DNA of 64,000 bases, taken from NCBI RefSeq assembly GCF_015775515.1, contig NZ_CP065383.1, forward strand, positions 1,426,001 through 1,490,000, in the 5' to 3' direction. The notes below the pieces were generated by a model, which was not told where the DNA came from, made no database searches, and saw only the letters and a list, made by a program, of their open reading frames with translations. Below, piece after piece: positions 45,446 through 51,302 of the stretch. Positions within the stretch are counted from its first letter, which is position 1. Every line of letters begins with the position of its first letter. Position numbers and translations under genes: made by a program. This DNA is from Atribacter laminatus (lineage in GTDB: Bacteria > Atribacterota > Atribacteria > Atribacterales > Atribacteraceae).

Positions 45446-45507
45446 GTTTAATTATGATGACTAAATATGACTAAATAATAGAAGGATTAAAGAGGAGAAT
45501 GTCAAAT

Positions 45508-46791
45508 ATGAATAATATAACTCATTTTAATTATTCGTTATATGACGAGCTTACACGAGCAAAGAGTTTTACCAGTAAGCGTATTTCAAGCTGGGATAGA
45601 TCTGGGAAAAATTATGATTGGTTACATGTTCTTCCTGGAGAAAAAGCCGTTTTAGCAGAGATAGAAGGACCGGGATGCATTCGACATATATATGCTTTGA
45701 TTCTTAGTTTCGATTTGTTTTTTTATCGTAATCTAATCTTAAGAATGTATTGGGATGGAGAAACCTCACCCAGTGTTGAAGTCCCAATTGGAGATTTTTT
45801 TGGCATTGGATTGTGTAAGCCACGATTATTTAGCTCTTTGATGTTAACGGTAAATCAAGGGGATCCGTTGTGGGCAACTCAAGGTTTAAACTCTTATTTC
45901 CCTATGCCATTCTCAAAATCAGCAAGGATTGAAATTGAAAATCTATCAAATATTCCTCTGGAATCTTTTTGGTATCATATTGATTATCAGCTTTATGAAG
46001 AAATTGATGATAATGTGATGAGATTCCATGCTCAGTGGTGGAGAGAATCGCCAACTCTAGCACAAGACCAGTTAACCAAAAATATAGTTCTTTGGGACGG
46101 AATCAATGAAAAAGGTAAAGGTAACTATATGGTTATGGAAGCAGAGGGTGATGGTCAGTTAGTTGGGATTTTCCTTGAAGTTGATAATATCGTAGGTGAT
46201 TGGTGGGGTGAAGGTGATGATATGGTTTTTATTGATGGTGAGACATGGCCTCCATCTTTTCATGGAACTGGAACAGAAGAAATATTTGGAGGAGGAGCTT
46301 CACCTACCCAAGAATACGCTGGTCCATATACTGGATTTCCGTTGATAAGTAGTCCAAATTATTACCGTCAATCAGCAATGTATCGTTTTTTTATCACTGA
46401 TCCTATACGTTTTAAAAAATCTATTAAATATACAATAGAACATGGTCATGCAAATAACTATGAAAATGATTATTCAAGTGTTGGTTACTGGTACCAATTT
46501 GAACCTCATAAACAATTAATAGCTTCCATAAATACTCGGGATCGGATTCCAGTATTAACCGATGGTCAAAAGCAAGTTTTTCAAAAACAGACCCAGGTAG
46601 CCCTTGATCTTTATAAGAAAATTAAAAAGTTGCAAGGAGATGCAAAGGGACCTTCACAATCAGATCTCAGAGTCACACGTGAACAAATTTCTTTATTCCG
46701 TAGCCGTGCTTTGAAGGCTTATCATGAAGGAATTTATGACCTTGCTTTAAAAGAATGGGAGATGGCTGAAAAATTTATAAAAAGCTTGTAA
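45508..46791 (+). CDS. DUF2961 / GH172 family protein (3)
   Basis: About 427 residues, the closest relative of the protein at 36905: RISSWDRSGKNYDW, EVPIGDFFGIG, GEGDDMVFIDGETWPPSFHG, TGTEEIFGGGAS and EHGHANNYENDYSS are shared. It has the same C-terminal helical tail. ATG 45508 gives a 10-base spacing from AGGAG; ATG 45499 would give one base. The pair probably arose by duplication and flanks the transporter and GH127-like genes. Likely a cytoplasmic furanosidase. Confidence 0.85.
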   Translation: MNNITHFNYSLYDELTRAKSFTSKRISSWDRSGKNYDWLHVLPGEKAVLAEIEGPGCIRHIYALILSFDLFFYRNLILRMYWDGETSPSVEVPIGDFFGIGLCKPRLFSSLMLTVNQGDPLWATQGLNSYFPMPFSKSARIEIENLSNIPLESFWYHIDYQLYEEIDDNVMRFHAQWWRESPTLAQDQLTKNIVLWDGINEKGKGNYMVMEAEGDGQLVGIFLEVDNIVGDWWGEGDDMVFIDGETWPPSFHGTGTEEIFGGGASPTQEYAGPYTGFPLISSPNYYRQSAMYRFFITDPIRFKKSIKYTIEHGHANNYENDYSSVGYWYQFEPHKQLIASINTRDRIPVLTDGQKQVFQKQTQVALDLYKKIKKLQGDAKGPSQSDLRVTREQISLFRSRALKAYHEGIYDLALKEWEMAEKFIKSL

Positions 46792-46839: not shown

Positions 46840-48594
46840 ATGAAAAATTTTGTCCCCATAGTTCCCAAAACGCTGAATTTAGAAGAACATGCTGAATTAG
46901 CTTTCAATCATTTAACCAACAATCTTGATGCTAATCGTAATTTCTTGCCATATTTTCATACAATTTTTGAAACTGATCCAGCAGAAGCTCGCCATGAAAT
47001 GTTTGATTATGGTGACTTAACAGCACGGTATTTAGATGCCCTCATTTTATGTCGAAATATGTGCGGTTCTGGTCAAGGGATAAATTATGAAAATAAGCTT
47101 AAAGAATTACTATTGGGTTATTTTGATGAAAACGATGGATTATGTTATCGACCTGCTCATACCTCACTATTTTCAACAGCTGTCTTCGATGCTGATTCGG
47201 TTCATTTAAAGCTCCAAAAAGACCTTCCAGTTATGTACAATTGCCATGTTGCTGAATTATTTGATCAAAGCCGAACTCTTATTGGACTTATTACCTGGTA
47301 TAAGGATAGCTGTGAGGTTGAAGTCAAAGATAAAATTGATGCTCTTATTGAAGGACTTGATCGCATTAGTATTAAAAAAGATGACTACTGTTATTTTTCT
47401 AAAACCGAATATTCTCCTGGTTATGTTCCTGCAAACGATGAGGTCCCTAACCATGCGCCAATATATTTTGGTGGAACTTTGATTTATCCTCTTTTAAAAT
47501 ATTATGAACTTACAAAAAGTAGAAAGGCTTTCAAACTAGCAGAAGGCTTATCAAAACATATTATTTTTCATACTAAATCCTATGAATCAAACGGCGGTTT
47601 TGCTGGAAAAGACCATAATGGACAATCTCATGGTCATATGTCGGCATTAACCGGTCTTATTTTCTATTCAATTACGATTAATAATCAAGAATTACTACAA
47701 TGGAGCAAAAAAGCCTTTGATTGGTTTATTCAGAATGGGTCTTCTTTTGGATGGTTCCCTGAATTTATCGGACGTCTTGCTCCTTCTCAAGAAGGATGCG
47801 AAACTTGCACAATAAATGATGTAATTTGTTGCGCCATCCTATTAGCTCGCTCAGGTTATTATGAGTACTGGGATCATATTGAAAGATTTACCAGGAATCA
47901 GTTGGTTGAAAATCAGCTTCGGGATACAAAATGGATGAAATCCTCTTGTCGGAAGGAGGATACCTGGTTATCTAGTTTTGACAATATTCCGGAGAGAGTG
48001 AGAGGCGGGTTTGCAGGTTGGGGAGGAATCAATGATTTTATTGGCAGTAATCCAATGTTTTCTCATCGAATGATGAATTGTTGCAGTCCATCAGGAGTCC
48101 ATGCTCTCTATCTTGTCTGGGAAAATATTGTAACCGAAAAAAATAGTGAAATTTATGTGAATCTTCTGCTTAATCACAGATCTAAATGGCTCAAATTATA
48201 TAATTTTATGCCTTATGAGGGTAAAATATTTGTTTCTGTAGATAATGCTCATATAGTAAATATTAAAATTCCTACTTGGGTAGAATTTTCACAAATAAAT
48301 TTTTCAATAAACAACGAAAACCAGGATTTTCTTGTTAGCGAGGGAGATTACATTCGAATTAAAGGCTTAAAACCAAGGGATACGATCGTAATTGAATTTC
48401 CTTTAAAAAAGGAAGTAATACCAGAAACAATTGCCGGAACTGAATACAAAATTTATTGGAGAGGGAACACAGTAATACGAGTGTTTCCCGAAGGGGAAGA
48501 GTACCCTCTTTATCAAAGAAATCATTTAGATAGTGATCAGGCAATTTACGAACAAAAAAGCTATAATTTGTCATTAAAAAGATTAAATTGGTAA
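46840..48594 (+). CDS. Putative alpha/alpha-barrel glycoside hydrolase, GH127-like
   Basis: A 584-residue protein I do not recognise with certainty. Its plan parallels the GH127-like enzyme: a helical N-terminal two thirds, a CysCys motif (MMNCCSPSG, about 413-414), and a beta-sandwich end (INFSINNENQDFLVSEGDYI, EYKIYWRGNTVIRV). CETCTINDV at about 323 could provide the Glu and Cys of a zinc site. It is the last gene of the furanoside locus and has no signal peptide. An uncharacterised branch of, or neighbour to, GH127 is my inference. Confidence 0.55.
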   Translation: MKNFVPIVPKTLNLEEHAELAFNHLTNNLDANRNFLPYFHTIFETDPAEARHEMFDYGDLTARYLDALILCRNMCGSGQGINYENKLKELLLGYFDENDGLCYRPAHTSLFSTAVFDADSVHLKLQKDLPVMYNCHVAELFDQSRTLIGLITWYKDSCEVEVKDKIDALIEGLDRISIKKDDYCYFSKTEYSPGYVPANDEVPNHAPIYFGGTLIYPLLKYYELTKSRKAFKLAEGLSKHIIFHTKSYESNGGFAGKDHNGQSHGHMSALTGLIFYSITINNQELLQWSKKAFDWFIQNGSSFGWFPEFIGRLAPSQEGCETCTINDVICCAILLARSGYYEYWDHIERFTRNQLVENQLRDTKWMKSSCRKEDTWLSSFDNIPERVRGGFAGWGGINDFIGSNPMFSHRMMNCCSPSGVHALYLVWENIVTEKNSEIYVNLLLNHRSKWLKLYNFMPYEGKIFVSVDNAHIVNIKIPTWVEFSQINFSINNENQDFLVSEGDYIRIKGLKPRDTIVIEFPLKKEVIPETIAGTEYKIYWRGNTVIRVFPEGEEYPLYQRNHLDSDQAIYEQKSYNLSLKRLNW

Positions 48595-48603
48595 AATTTT
48601 ACC

Positions 48604-48822
48604 GGGGTCTATTATACAATTTAAAGAGGATAACGAGGCATTTTCATTACAACATGCTGTTTGAGACGGGGGTGTGGCTGTTGGGGTTCGTTATCCAGGA
48701 AACTGGATTCGCTCGGGCTCTTGAAATGCCGCCCTCGTTTTTTTTATTGCACCAAGACATCTGCTGGGATGGTGCCGTTCATATGACTATGGCTCTATGA
48801 ATAGACGCAATAACGACAACTG
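48604..48822 (+). ncRNA. Structured RNA-like element, tandem unit 1
   Basis: A 219-base unit repeated directly downstream. CGAGGCA (about 48634-48640) can pair with TGCC..CCTCG near 48727-48737, followed by a run of eight T. Inside is a stem ATCCAG-GAAA-CTGGAT with a GNRA-type loop, and a 47-base block (48660-48706) identical in both units. After the T-run, ATTGC/GCAAT can form an outer stem around ACATCTGCTGGGATGGTGCC. No convincing protein is encoded. The position ahead of an IS110 remnant suggests a bridge-RNA relative; this is not proven. Confidence 0.5.
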
Positions 48823-49046
48823 GGGGTCTATCATACAATTTTGAGAGGATAACGAGGCATCCCCGGATAAAATATGCTATGCTATTTGAGACGGGGGTGT
48901 GGCTGTTGGGGTTCGTTATCCAGGAAACTGGGTTCACTCGACTCTGAAATGCCGCCCTCGTTTTTTTATTGTCCCGTAACATCTGCTGGGATGGTGCCGG
49001 TCGTGTGACTGTGGCTCTGTTAATAGACGCGATGTGGGACAATAAA
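48823..49046 (+). ncRNA. Structured RNA-like element, tandem unit 2
   Basis: The second copy lies about 40 bases before the IS110 transposase start, where IS110 elements carry their bridge RNA. The core 48885-48931 is identical to unit 1. The segment 48860-48884 is different in sequence and length from unit 1. The outer stem is ATTGTCCC/GGGACAAT instead of ATTGC/GCAAT, and the inner stem has CTGGGT for CTGGAT, so pairing is kept while bases change. Confidence 0.5.
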
Positions 49047-49086
49047 GAATACATCCTCAATATATCAAGCTTACAAGGCTCCGCTC

Positions 49087-50310
49087 ATGAACGAACACCT
49101 TCTGGTTGGCATCGATGTTGGATGTCATTCGCATCAGGTTGCCATTGCAGAATCAAATGGCACACATCTTTAAAGAATTTGGGATTTCTCATAATGCCAG
49201 TGGTTTTAACTCTCTTTTTTCTGAAATTAATCATTATGAATCAACTTTGAAATGTCCAGTCATAATCGGAATGGAAGGGTTTAATGGGTATGCTCGACCT
49301 CTTGATCAATTGATTCAACAGAAAGGCTATATCCTGTATAACATCAATAATTTAAAACTGGCTCGATTCAAAGAGCTGTTCTTAAGGTCCTGCAAAAACT
49401 GATGTGATTGTGCCCTAAAAGATTGTCGAGTTCATGCGGATTGCTCCTTCTTTCCAAGGAGAGCGTTGAGCCATCACTCAAAATCAAACCAGGAAACGGA
49501 GTGAATCAGACCCTCAAACGATTGACTCCGATACGTGCGACAGTTGGTGAATGAAAAGATCAGCATCCAGAATCGAATGCAAGGCTTTCCTTTCAATCAG
49601 TCGCTCCGGGGTTAGTTGATTTGGTGAAAAATGTTGATAGTCGCTGGTATCTCCATTTTCTCACCTGCCGTCCTTCACTCCGAAATCTCGCTACCATGCG
49701 GAAAGAGAGTCTCCTCAAGATTAAAGGAGTCGGGAAAAAGTATGCTGCAGTAATCGCTTCCTGGCAAAAAGAAGCTCATTTTTCTACTGATGTTGACTTG
49801 GTCAGCTCCATGATCATTGAGGATGCCAAACGCATACTAGCGCTTATGGAAGCCATTGCAACCATTGAACAGGAGCTCGAGCCTCTCTGCGAACAATCAG
49901 ATCTTGCCGGAATCATCGGAAGTATTCCTGGTTTTGGACCAATTTCTTCAGCTGAACTAGCTGGTGAAATTGACGATCTCAGTCGTTTTCCGCAAGATAT
50001 GAGCTTAGCTTTGTACCTAGGAATGGCACCACTTGATAATAGTTCAGGGAAAAAAGAAGGGTGTAAGGTTGCCAAATCAGTGAATACTCGAACTAAAGCA
50101 GCAATGATGGTTGCGGTGGCTCATCATTCTTGGCAAGTCGAAGAATCAAAGCGATACTATGAGAAAAAACGATTAGAAGGGAAAAAGCATAATCAGGCTA
50201 TCCGATCACTGGGGAGACATCTGGTCAGGGTTATTTGGTCACTCATAAAAGAAAAGCGCTTCTATGAAATCCGAGAAGAAAACGAGAGAAATATTTTAAA
50301 AATGGCTTGA
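49087..50310 (+). pseudogene. IS110-family transposase, decayed
   Basis: Pieces of one IS110 transposase lie in several frames. The N-terminus is LLVGIDVGCHSHQVAIAESN (RuvC-like domain, first Asp) from ATG 49087. A shift follows at about 49165 to ASGFNSLFSEI, then IIGMEGFNGYARPL (Glu), then AKTDVI broken by a stop near 49420. QLVNEKISIQNRMQ lies near 49550. An intact C-terminal Transposase_20 half runs from 49621 to 50310 (IGSIPGFGPISSAELAGEI, NSSGKKEGCKVAKSVNTRTK). The enzyme cannot be functional as read. Element ends were not identified. Confidence 0.85.
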
Positions 50311-50321
50311 AATTTGTAGTG

Positions 50322-50355
50322 GGATGTTCAGGTCTTGATTCTTGAATTTTTAATG
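50322..50355 (+). repeat. 34-base sequence also present at 61996-62029
   Basis: GGATGTTCAGGTCTTGATTC and the following 14 bases are identical at both places. It lies just after the IS110 remnant, so it may mark an element end or a separate repeat. Confidence 0.7.
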
Positions 50356-51126: not shown

Positions 51127-51200
51127 AAATTTTTGTATCTTATAACAATAAGTCCTCATGCCTTTTTATACCAACAAAAAAAATGAAAACCTATAATTCG

Positions 51201-51216
51201 ACATGCCATGGCATGT
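51201..51216. repeat. Perfect palindrome ACATGCCATGGCATGT
   Basis: Exact second copy of the 16-bp core seen at 30994-31011, again in a repeat-rich gap and near an ATTGCGCCC-type sequence (about 51241). Confidence 0.7.
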
Positions 51217-51302
51217 TGCTACATGAATCGGGCACGATAAATTGCGCCCCTCCATTTTATAATCTTATGTAGAGGCTTGATTGATCATGCCCGCGGGTTT
51301 TT

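What the first reader, a model, noticed from the sequence alone, without database searches (positions are those of the whole stretch)
48604..49046. Tandem structured RNA-like units directly upstream of an IS110 remnant
Two 219-224-base units lie head to tail just before an IS110-family transposase remnant. They share an identical 47-base core, a GAAA-capped stem, a closing stem over a T-run and an outer stem whose bases change in step (ATTGC/GCAAT in one, ATTGTCCC/GGGACAAT in the other). IS110 elements are known to encode a bridge RNA in this position. A tandem pair is unusual and might be a relic of nested insertion, or an RNA locus that has outlived its transposase.
Basis: partly seen in the sequence, partly recalled or inferred. 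Interest (0 to 1): 0.8.

Follow-up and report, generated by a model that had tools for sequence, protein, structure and literature searches.

The report
Nested IS110 bridge-RNA relics
Two copies of the guide RNA of a jumping gene (an IS110 insertion sequence) lie head to tail in an Atribacterota genome because one copy inserted right beside the remains of another; the RNA type is known, but the locus shows such RNAs surviving and spreading after their transposase was broken.

Summary
The two units are real: 48604-48822 and 48823-49060, 84% alike, with an identical 47-base core. Each is the left end of an IS110-group insertion sequence and holds its bridge RNA. Unit 2 belongs to a complete but pseudogenised element (48829-50327). 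Unit 1 is an older left end without a transposase. The host is Atribacterota. An intact relative (405-aa transposase, homologous RNA, same ends and target) lies in a related genome. Evidence: covariation across 24 relatives; target-loop and donor-loop sequences that match the insertion site and element ends; a TTGAAA-N17-TATCAT promoter that forms only when the ends join in a circle; and a 27-bp REP-like repeat, TGGGGTC^AGGTCTTGATTCTTGAATTT (71 places in this genome), into which the element inserts at ^. The tandem is best read as element 2 inserting into such a site at the right edge of decayed element 1. This genome has about 21 model matches to the unit, mostly without transposase. Its five near-complete copies share the same inactivating lesions, so the family probably spread in trans, or by gene conversion, after the enzyme died. 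New member of a known kind, of modest interest.

The parts
48604..48609 (+). GGGGTC: left half of the target repeat (with TC core) at the left edge of element 1
   Evidence: same hexamer flanks most left ends; empty sites read GGGGTC-AGGTCTTGATTC
48610..48822 (+). element 1: decayed IS110 left end with bridge-RNA unit 1, no transposase
   Evidence: 84% identical to unit 2; R1 model 151 bits in genome search
48679..48692 (+). unit 1 target loop, 5' strand (TGTTGGGGTTCGTT)
   Evidence: structure and alignment
48798..48806 (+). unit 1 donor loop, 3' strand (TGAATAGAC, reverse complement of left end GTCTATT)
48823..48828 (+). GGGGTC: left half of the target of element 2; TC core at 48827-48828
   Evidence: joins with 50330-50349 to restore the 27-bp repeat found at 71 places
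48829..50327 (+). element 2: full-length IS110 copy, transposase pseudogenised
   Evidence: same termini in five copies with unrelated flanks
48829..48834 (+). TATCAT: -10 box of the circle-junction promoter
   Evidence: TTGAAA-N17-TATCAT when the ends are joined; the same in the intact relative L056
48851..49043 (+). unit 2 bridge RNA, structured part
   Evidence: folding z -3.7; covariation
48858..48899 (+). 5' stem-loop of the bridge RNA
   Evidence: 16-bp helix in L056, 13/16 pairs kept in unit 2
48904..48917 (+). target loop, 5' strand (LTG): TGTTGGGGTTCGTT, near match to GGGGTC
   Evidence: exact GGGGTC in L056 and L119
48918..48933 (+). GAAA-capped inner hairpin of the target loop
   Evidence: 97% of cells paired, 3 pairs with changes on both sides
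48934..48950 (+). target loop, 3' strand (RTG): TCACTCGACTCTGAAAT
   Evidence: pairs TCAG-GTC with one bulge; L119 has the exact 7-mer
48961..48967 (+). T-run between target and donor domains
   Evidence: sequence; most transposase-less homologues stop being similar here
48968..49043 (+). donor stem-loop, closed by ATTGTCCC/GGGACAAT
48987..48993 (+). donor loop, 5' strand (LDG): TGGGATG, identical to the right end
   Evidence: 7-nt run, p about 0.016-0.024 against shuffled loops
49021..49027 (+). donor loop, 3' strand (RDG): TAATAGA, reverse complement of left end TCTATTA
   Evidence: core-anchored p 0.0008 in c1141, 0.01 in unit 2
49087..50310 (+). degenerate IS110 transposase (several stops; second D of the DxxD motif lost)
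   Evidence: PF02371 E 1e-18; PF01548 at 1475163-1475582 of the genome, with stops; lesions
50307..50312 (+). TTGAAA: -35 box of the circle-junction promoter, in the right end
50316..50329 (+). right end GTAGTGGGATGTTC, core TC at 50328-50329
   Evidence: identical in all full copies and in L056
50330..50349 (+). right half of the target repeat, AGGTCTTGATTCTTGAATTT

Best explanation
The units are two bridge RNAs (seekRNAs) of one IS110-group insertion sequence family of Atribacteraceae. When the element is excised as a circle, its right end (TTGAAA) and left end (TATCAT or TATTAT) meet and form a promoter, which transcribes the roughly 210-nt RNA. Its first internal loop (TBL) specifies the target GGGGTC-AGGTC. 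Its second (DBL) specifies the element's own ends. The DEDD transposase then recombines at the TC core, inserting the circle into a 27-bp REP-like genomic repeat. Here, element 1 inserted first and lost its transposase and right part. Element 2 then inserted into a GGGGTC^AGGTC site at the right edge of element 1, which gives the tandem. All transposases of this subfamily in this genome are now broken, so the RNAs are relics. Shown: ends, empty sites, homology, fold covariation, guide matches, junction promoter, shared lesions. Inferred: transcription, RNA-protein binding, order of insertions, spread in trans.
For: Transposase domains PF01548 and PF02371. Intact 405-aa relative with homologous ncRNA, same ends and same target. 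Five copies with identical termini and unrelated flanks. Target repeat at 71 places against 0 for the reversed pattern, with unrelated flanks. Covariation with 0 of 500 shuffles as high on three covariation measures. Circle-junction promoter with 17-bp spacer in three variants. RDG changes with the LE: LE TCTATTA has RDG TAATAGA, and LE TCTATAAT in L118/L119 has RDG ATTATAGA (core-anchored p 0.0008-0.002). L119 target loop holds exact GGGGTC and TCAGGTC. The domain order (5' stem-loop, target loop, donor loop) and strand rule are those published for IS621 (PMC11208160). Nesting: 48823-48828 plus 50330-50349 restore the repeat.
Against: In the window-type copies the RTG matches the target for only 4 contiguous bases (7 with a bulge), the LTG carries an extra T, and the LDG match stops before the core. 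Single guide p-values are modest and many comparisons were made. The outer AACGAGG/CCTCGTT helix has little covariation. No expression data. The right end of element 1 is not recognisable, so a deletion could have joined the two units instead of an insertion.
Confidence: 0.9

Rival explanations
1. The tandem is not a nested insertion. One element's left end was duplicated, or a deletion fused two neighbouring elements, leaving two RNAs in front of one transposase.
For: Element 1 has no recognisable right end. Unit 1's end, AACTGGGGGTC, is also readable as a damaged right end (compare AGTGGGATGTTC). Copies c1764 and c2564 do carry a 25-bp tandem duplication of the left end.
Against: The units differ by 16% and by lineage-specific variants (unit 1 shares ATTGCACCAAG with L055, L057 and L060; unit 2 shares ATTGTCCCGTAAC with L054), so this is not a recent duplication. 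Element 2's two flanks rebuild the known 27-bp target exactly where the model predicts.
Confidence: 0.2
2. The tandem pair or the solo units work as an independent regulatory RNA locus, kept by selection without a transposase.
For: Units occur in G003 and G005, where no close transposase was found. One solo unit is orthologous between two species, upstream of a flavin-oxidoreductase-like gene (1130001(-) and L068). The GAAA-loop stem shows excess pairing in solo copies (p 0.011).
Against: Solo copies have eroded 5' stem-loops (74% paired, no excess over shuffles) and mostly lack the donor domain. Unit 1's 5' stem-loop and donor stem are decayed. G003 and G005 are incomplete assemblies.
Confidence: 0.07
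3. The units are a REP-like or riboswitch-like structured repeat that IS110 happens to use as its target.
For: Units are more numerous than transposases (about 21 against 5).
Against: The unit begins exactly at the element's own terminus and is present in the same register in all five copies and in the intact relative. The actual target is a different, 27-bp repeat. No Rfam match.
Confidence: 0.02

Closest known systems
IS621 bridge RNA (IS110 group; Durrant et al. 2024, PMC11208160)
   Same: RNA in the long left end upstream of tnp; 5' stem-loop then two loops, target first and donor second; 5' loop strand matches the top strand, 3' strand its complement; circle-junction sigma-70 promoter; REP-type target; two-base core
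   Different: Core TC; target GGGGTC-AGGTC in a REP-like Atribacterota repeat; longer RNA (about 210-240 nt against 177); a T-run between target and donor domains; transposase dead in this genome
seekRNA of ISEc21 and IS1111 elements (PMC11187229)
   Same: ncRNA guides target choice; transposition of a mini-IS works with transposase and RNA supplied in trans
   Different: IS1111 elements carry the RNA in the right end with long subterminal inverted repeats; here it is in the left end and the right end is only 17 nt
ISPpu9 small RNAs of Pseudomonas putida (PMC8450116)
   Same: IS110-type element in REP sequences with small RNAs encoded beside tnp
   Different: Studied as regulators of tnp expression; no tandem or solo units described in the abstract read

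Membership tests
IS110 group of the IS110 family | DEDD N-terminal domain (PF01548) and C-terminal PF02371, about 300-460 aa | tested here: met
   Intact relative P0001, 405 aa, both domains; the window copy is a broken homologue
IS110 group of the IS110 family | Long non-coding left end, short right end | tested here: met
   Left end 258 nt (48829-49086), right end 17 nt (50311-50327)
IS110 group of the IS110 family | Insertion at a short core, no target duplication, specific (often REP) target | tested here: met
   Flanks rejoin to GGGGTC-AGGTCTTGATTC, a repeat found at 71 places without need of the element
IS110 group of the IS110 family | Promoter formed at the joined ends of the circle | tested here: met
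   TTGAAA-N17-TATCAT/TATTAT in silico, three variants; activity not tested
[quoted passage not shown]
   Named structure 84-87% paired with covariation
Bridge RNA (IS110 type) | Donor loop complementary to element ends | tested here: met
   LDG 7 nt, RDG 5-8 nt, co-changing between clades; LDG match does not reach the core
Bridge RNA (IS110 type) | Target loop complementary to target | tested here: inconclusive
   Exact in L119 (GGGGTC, TCAGGTC), half in L056 (LTG exact, RTG with bulge and wobble), weak in the window copy
Bridge RNA (IS110 type) | Transcribed and bound by its transposase | not testable with these tools
   needs RNA-seq and binding assay
IS1111 group | RNA in a long right end, subterminal inverted repeats of 7-17 bp | tested here: not met
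   Right end 17 nt, RNA in the left end; subterminal repeats not scored separately

The most novel reading that the evidence does not exclude
The target-loop half of the bridge RNA has become a separate, dispersed element in the genus (S1 type, about 400 nt, at least five copies in four species, no donor loop, no transposase). It could persist as a stand-alone RNA, or act in trans as a guide or decoy for IS110 transposases.
Probability: 0.07. Interest if true: 0.7.

Novelty: new member of a known kind. Interest (0 to 1): 0.3.

Why it matters
It places a complete, decodable bridge-RNA system (ends, core, target repeat, guides, promoter) in Atribacterota, with an intact relative as a candidate for programmable-recombinase work. 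It also shows the guide RNA outliving its enzyme: five copies share the same inactivating lesions, which suggests spread in trans or gene conversion. No family in the Rfam copy searched (release 15) matched these RNAs, so annotation against it would miss them.

Tried and rejected
Rfam at gathering and permissive thresholds: nothing above chance. A genome-wide file of the host was not available. A synteny test of the empty window locus failed because the left-flank gene region has no match in the five other genomes of the genus held. The right-flank query hit a high-copy unrelated repeat. The genome-contig scan gave only one close relative. Considered a diversity-generating or inversion system because units cluster near 0.14, 1.13 and 2.52 Mb; rejected because the clusters are relics with unrelated flanks. 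Considered coding; rejected, since no frame is open across homologues. Considered functional selection on solo units; only one helix shows weak excess pairing.

Full report
Observation. Units 48604-48822 and 48823-49060 are head to tail, 84% identical, and share an exact 47-nt run. Both carry a GAAA-capped stem, an AACGAGG/CCTCGTT closing stem and a T-run. Unit 2 has the ATTGTCCC/GGGACAAT stem and folds with z -3.7; unit 1 has z -1.7. The claimed matching stem of unit 1 (ATTGC/GCAAT) is not at the homologous place.

Surroundings. Downstream lies a degenerate IS110 transposase. PF02371 matches the window copy and PF01548 its sister copy c153; the window's own N-terminal part scores below the PF01548 cut-off and contains stops. 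The genome is a 3.1-Mb single contig of Atribacterota: the close relative found by scan is a Ca. Atribacteria MAG, and species identity with Atribacter laminatus is my inference. Five near-complete copies of the element exist there, all broken. Four intact IS110 copies of a distant kind (360 aa, about 24% identity) also exist.

Ends and target. Aligning the five copies gives a left end after GGGGTC and a right end GTAGTGGGATGTTC, followed by AGGTCTTGA. Rejoining the flanks gives GGGGTCAGGTCTTGATTCTTGAATTT. A 21-base part of it occurs at 71 places with up to 3 mismatches, against 0 for the reversed control, with unrelated sequence on both sides. It is a short REP-like repeat. A Y1-transposase-like gene (PF01797, just under the cut-off) lies next to one copy, so a RAYT origin is possible but not shown.

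Intact relative. G008 contig 193 (L056) holds an open 405-aa transposase with homologous RNA, the same right end and a GGGGTC / AGGTCTTGA site. L118 and L119, about 35% identical transposases in another family of the phylum, have diverged RNAs with the same layout.

RNA. On ten full units the named structure is 87% paired (slid versions 38-47%), with 6 doubly changed pairs against 2.5 expected. On 24 left halves 13 pairs are doubly changed against 5.3 +/- 1.9, and no shuffle of 500 reaches it. No frame is open across homologues.

Guides. By the published rule (PMC11208160) the 5' loop strand equals the top strand and the 3' strand its complement. Donor loop: TGGGATG equals the right end in unit 2, c1141 and L056; TAATAGA is the complement of TCTATTA in c1141, and ATTATAGA of TCTATAAT in L118 and L119. 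The RNA and the end thus change together between clades. Target loop: GGGGTC exact in L056 and L119, TCAGGTC exact in L119, weaker in the window copy. For L118 and L119 the right half of the target was taken from the host repeat, because their own right flanks are not in the contigs. Tests are small and several were made; the agreement across four loop strands and two clades carries the weight.

Promoter. Joined ends give TTGAAA-17-TATCAT or TATTAT, the arrangement described for IS110 circles (PMC11208160). The inserted form loses the -35 box.

Tandem. Element 2's flanks restore the repeat, so element 2 entered a GGGGTC-AGGTC site that lay directly after unit 1's donor stem. That site may be the junction between element 1's damaged right end and its own right flank, or a separate repeat copy. 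The two units belong to different sublineages, which argues against a recent duplication.

Relics. The left-half model finds 21 matches in the host and 42 in six genomes of one family. Most host matches have no transposase. Two genomes (G003, G005) have units but no close transposase, though both are incomplete. One type (S1) is a dispersed ~400-nt element whose right part is unrelated to IS110 and ends in an inverted copy of the target repeat. Solo units keep 74-96% of pairs by helix, without clear evidence of selection apart from the GAAA stem (p 0.011).

Spread after death. All five copies share the loss of the second Asp of the DxxD motif (TDVIVP for TDAIDA) and a TGA a little further on, while L054, L055 and L056 keep both Asp residues there. 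The five sit at different sites with exact ends. Either the dead element moved in trans, which mini-elements do in the laboratory (PMC11187229), or gene conversion spread the lesions. I favour the former weakly.

Verdict. A new member of the known IS110 bridge-RNA kind, in nested and decayed form. Confidence 0.9 for the RNA identity and about 0.75 for nested insertion.

Noticed in passing
window 51183-51300: High-copy interspersed repeat with dozens of hits in the host and in most of the other genomes of the genus, unrelated to the bridge RNA.
   Followed up: no
G000:C1:1764739-1764800 and 2564887-2564950 (loci L004, L003): Two element copies carry a 25-bp tandem duplication of the left end (TATCATACAATTTTGAGAGGATAAC), which doubles the -10 box.
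   Followed up: no
L026:6293-6700, L029:6880-7283(-), L058, L062, L072: S1: a ~400-nt dispersed non-coding element made of the target-loop half of the bridge RNA plus an unrelated conserved right part that ends in an inverted target repeat.
   Followed up: partly
L022:1854-2002(-) and L068:1499-1647(-): A transposase-less unit kept at the same place upstream of a flavin-oxidoreductase-like gene in two species.
   Followed up: partly
G000:C1:1794365, 1847255, 2671291, 2845843: Four intact copies of a distant IS110 (360 aa) in the same genome; its RNA and target were not studied.
   Followed up: no
L056:2247-2308: Fluoride riboswitch (RF01734) near the intact element in the relative.
   Followed up: no
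window 45499-46791 and 46840-48594: Two long ORFs (430 and 584 aa, carbohydrate-active-enzyme-like by eye) directly left of the tandem; the second region has no DNA match in the other genomes of the genus.
   Followed up: no
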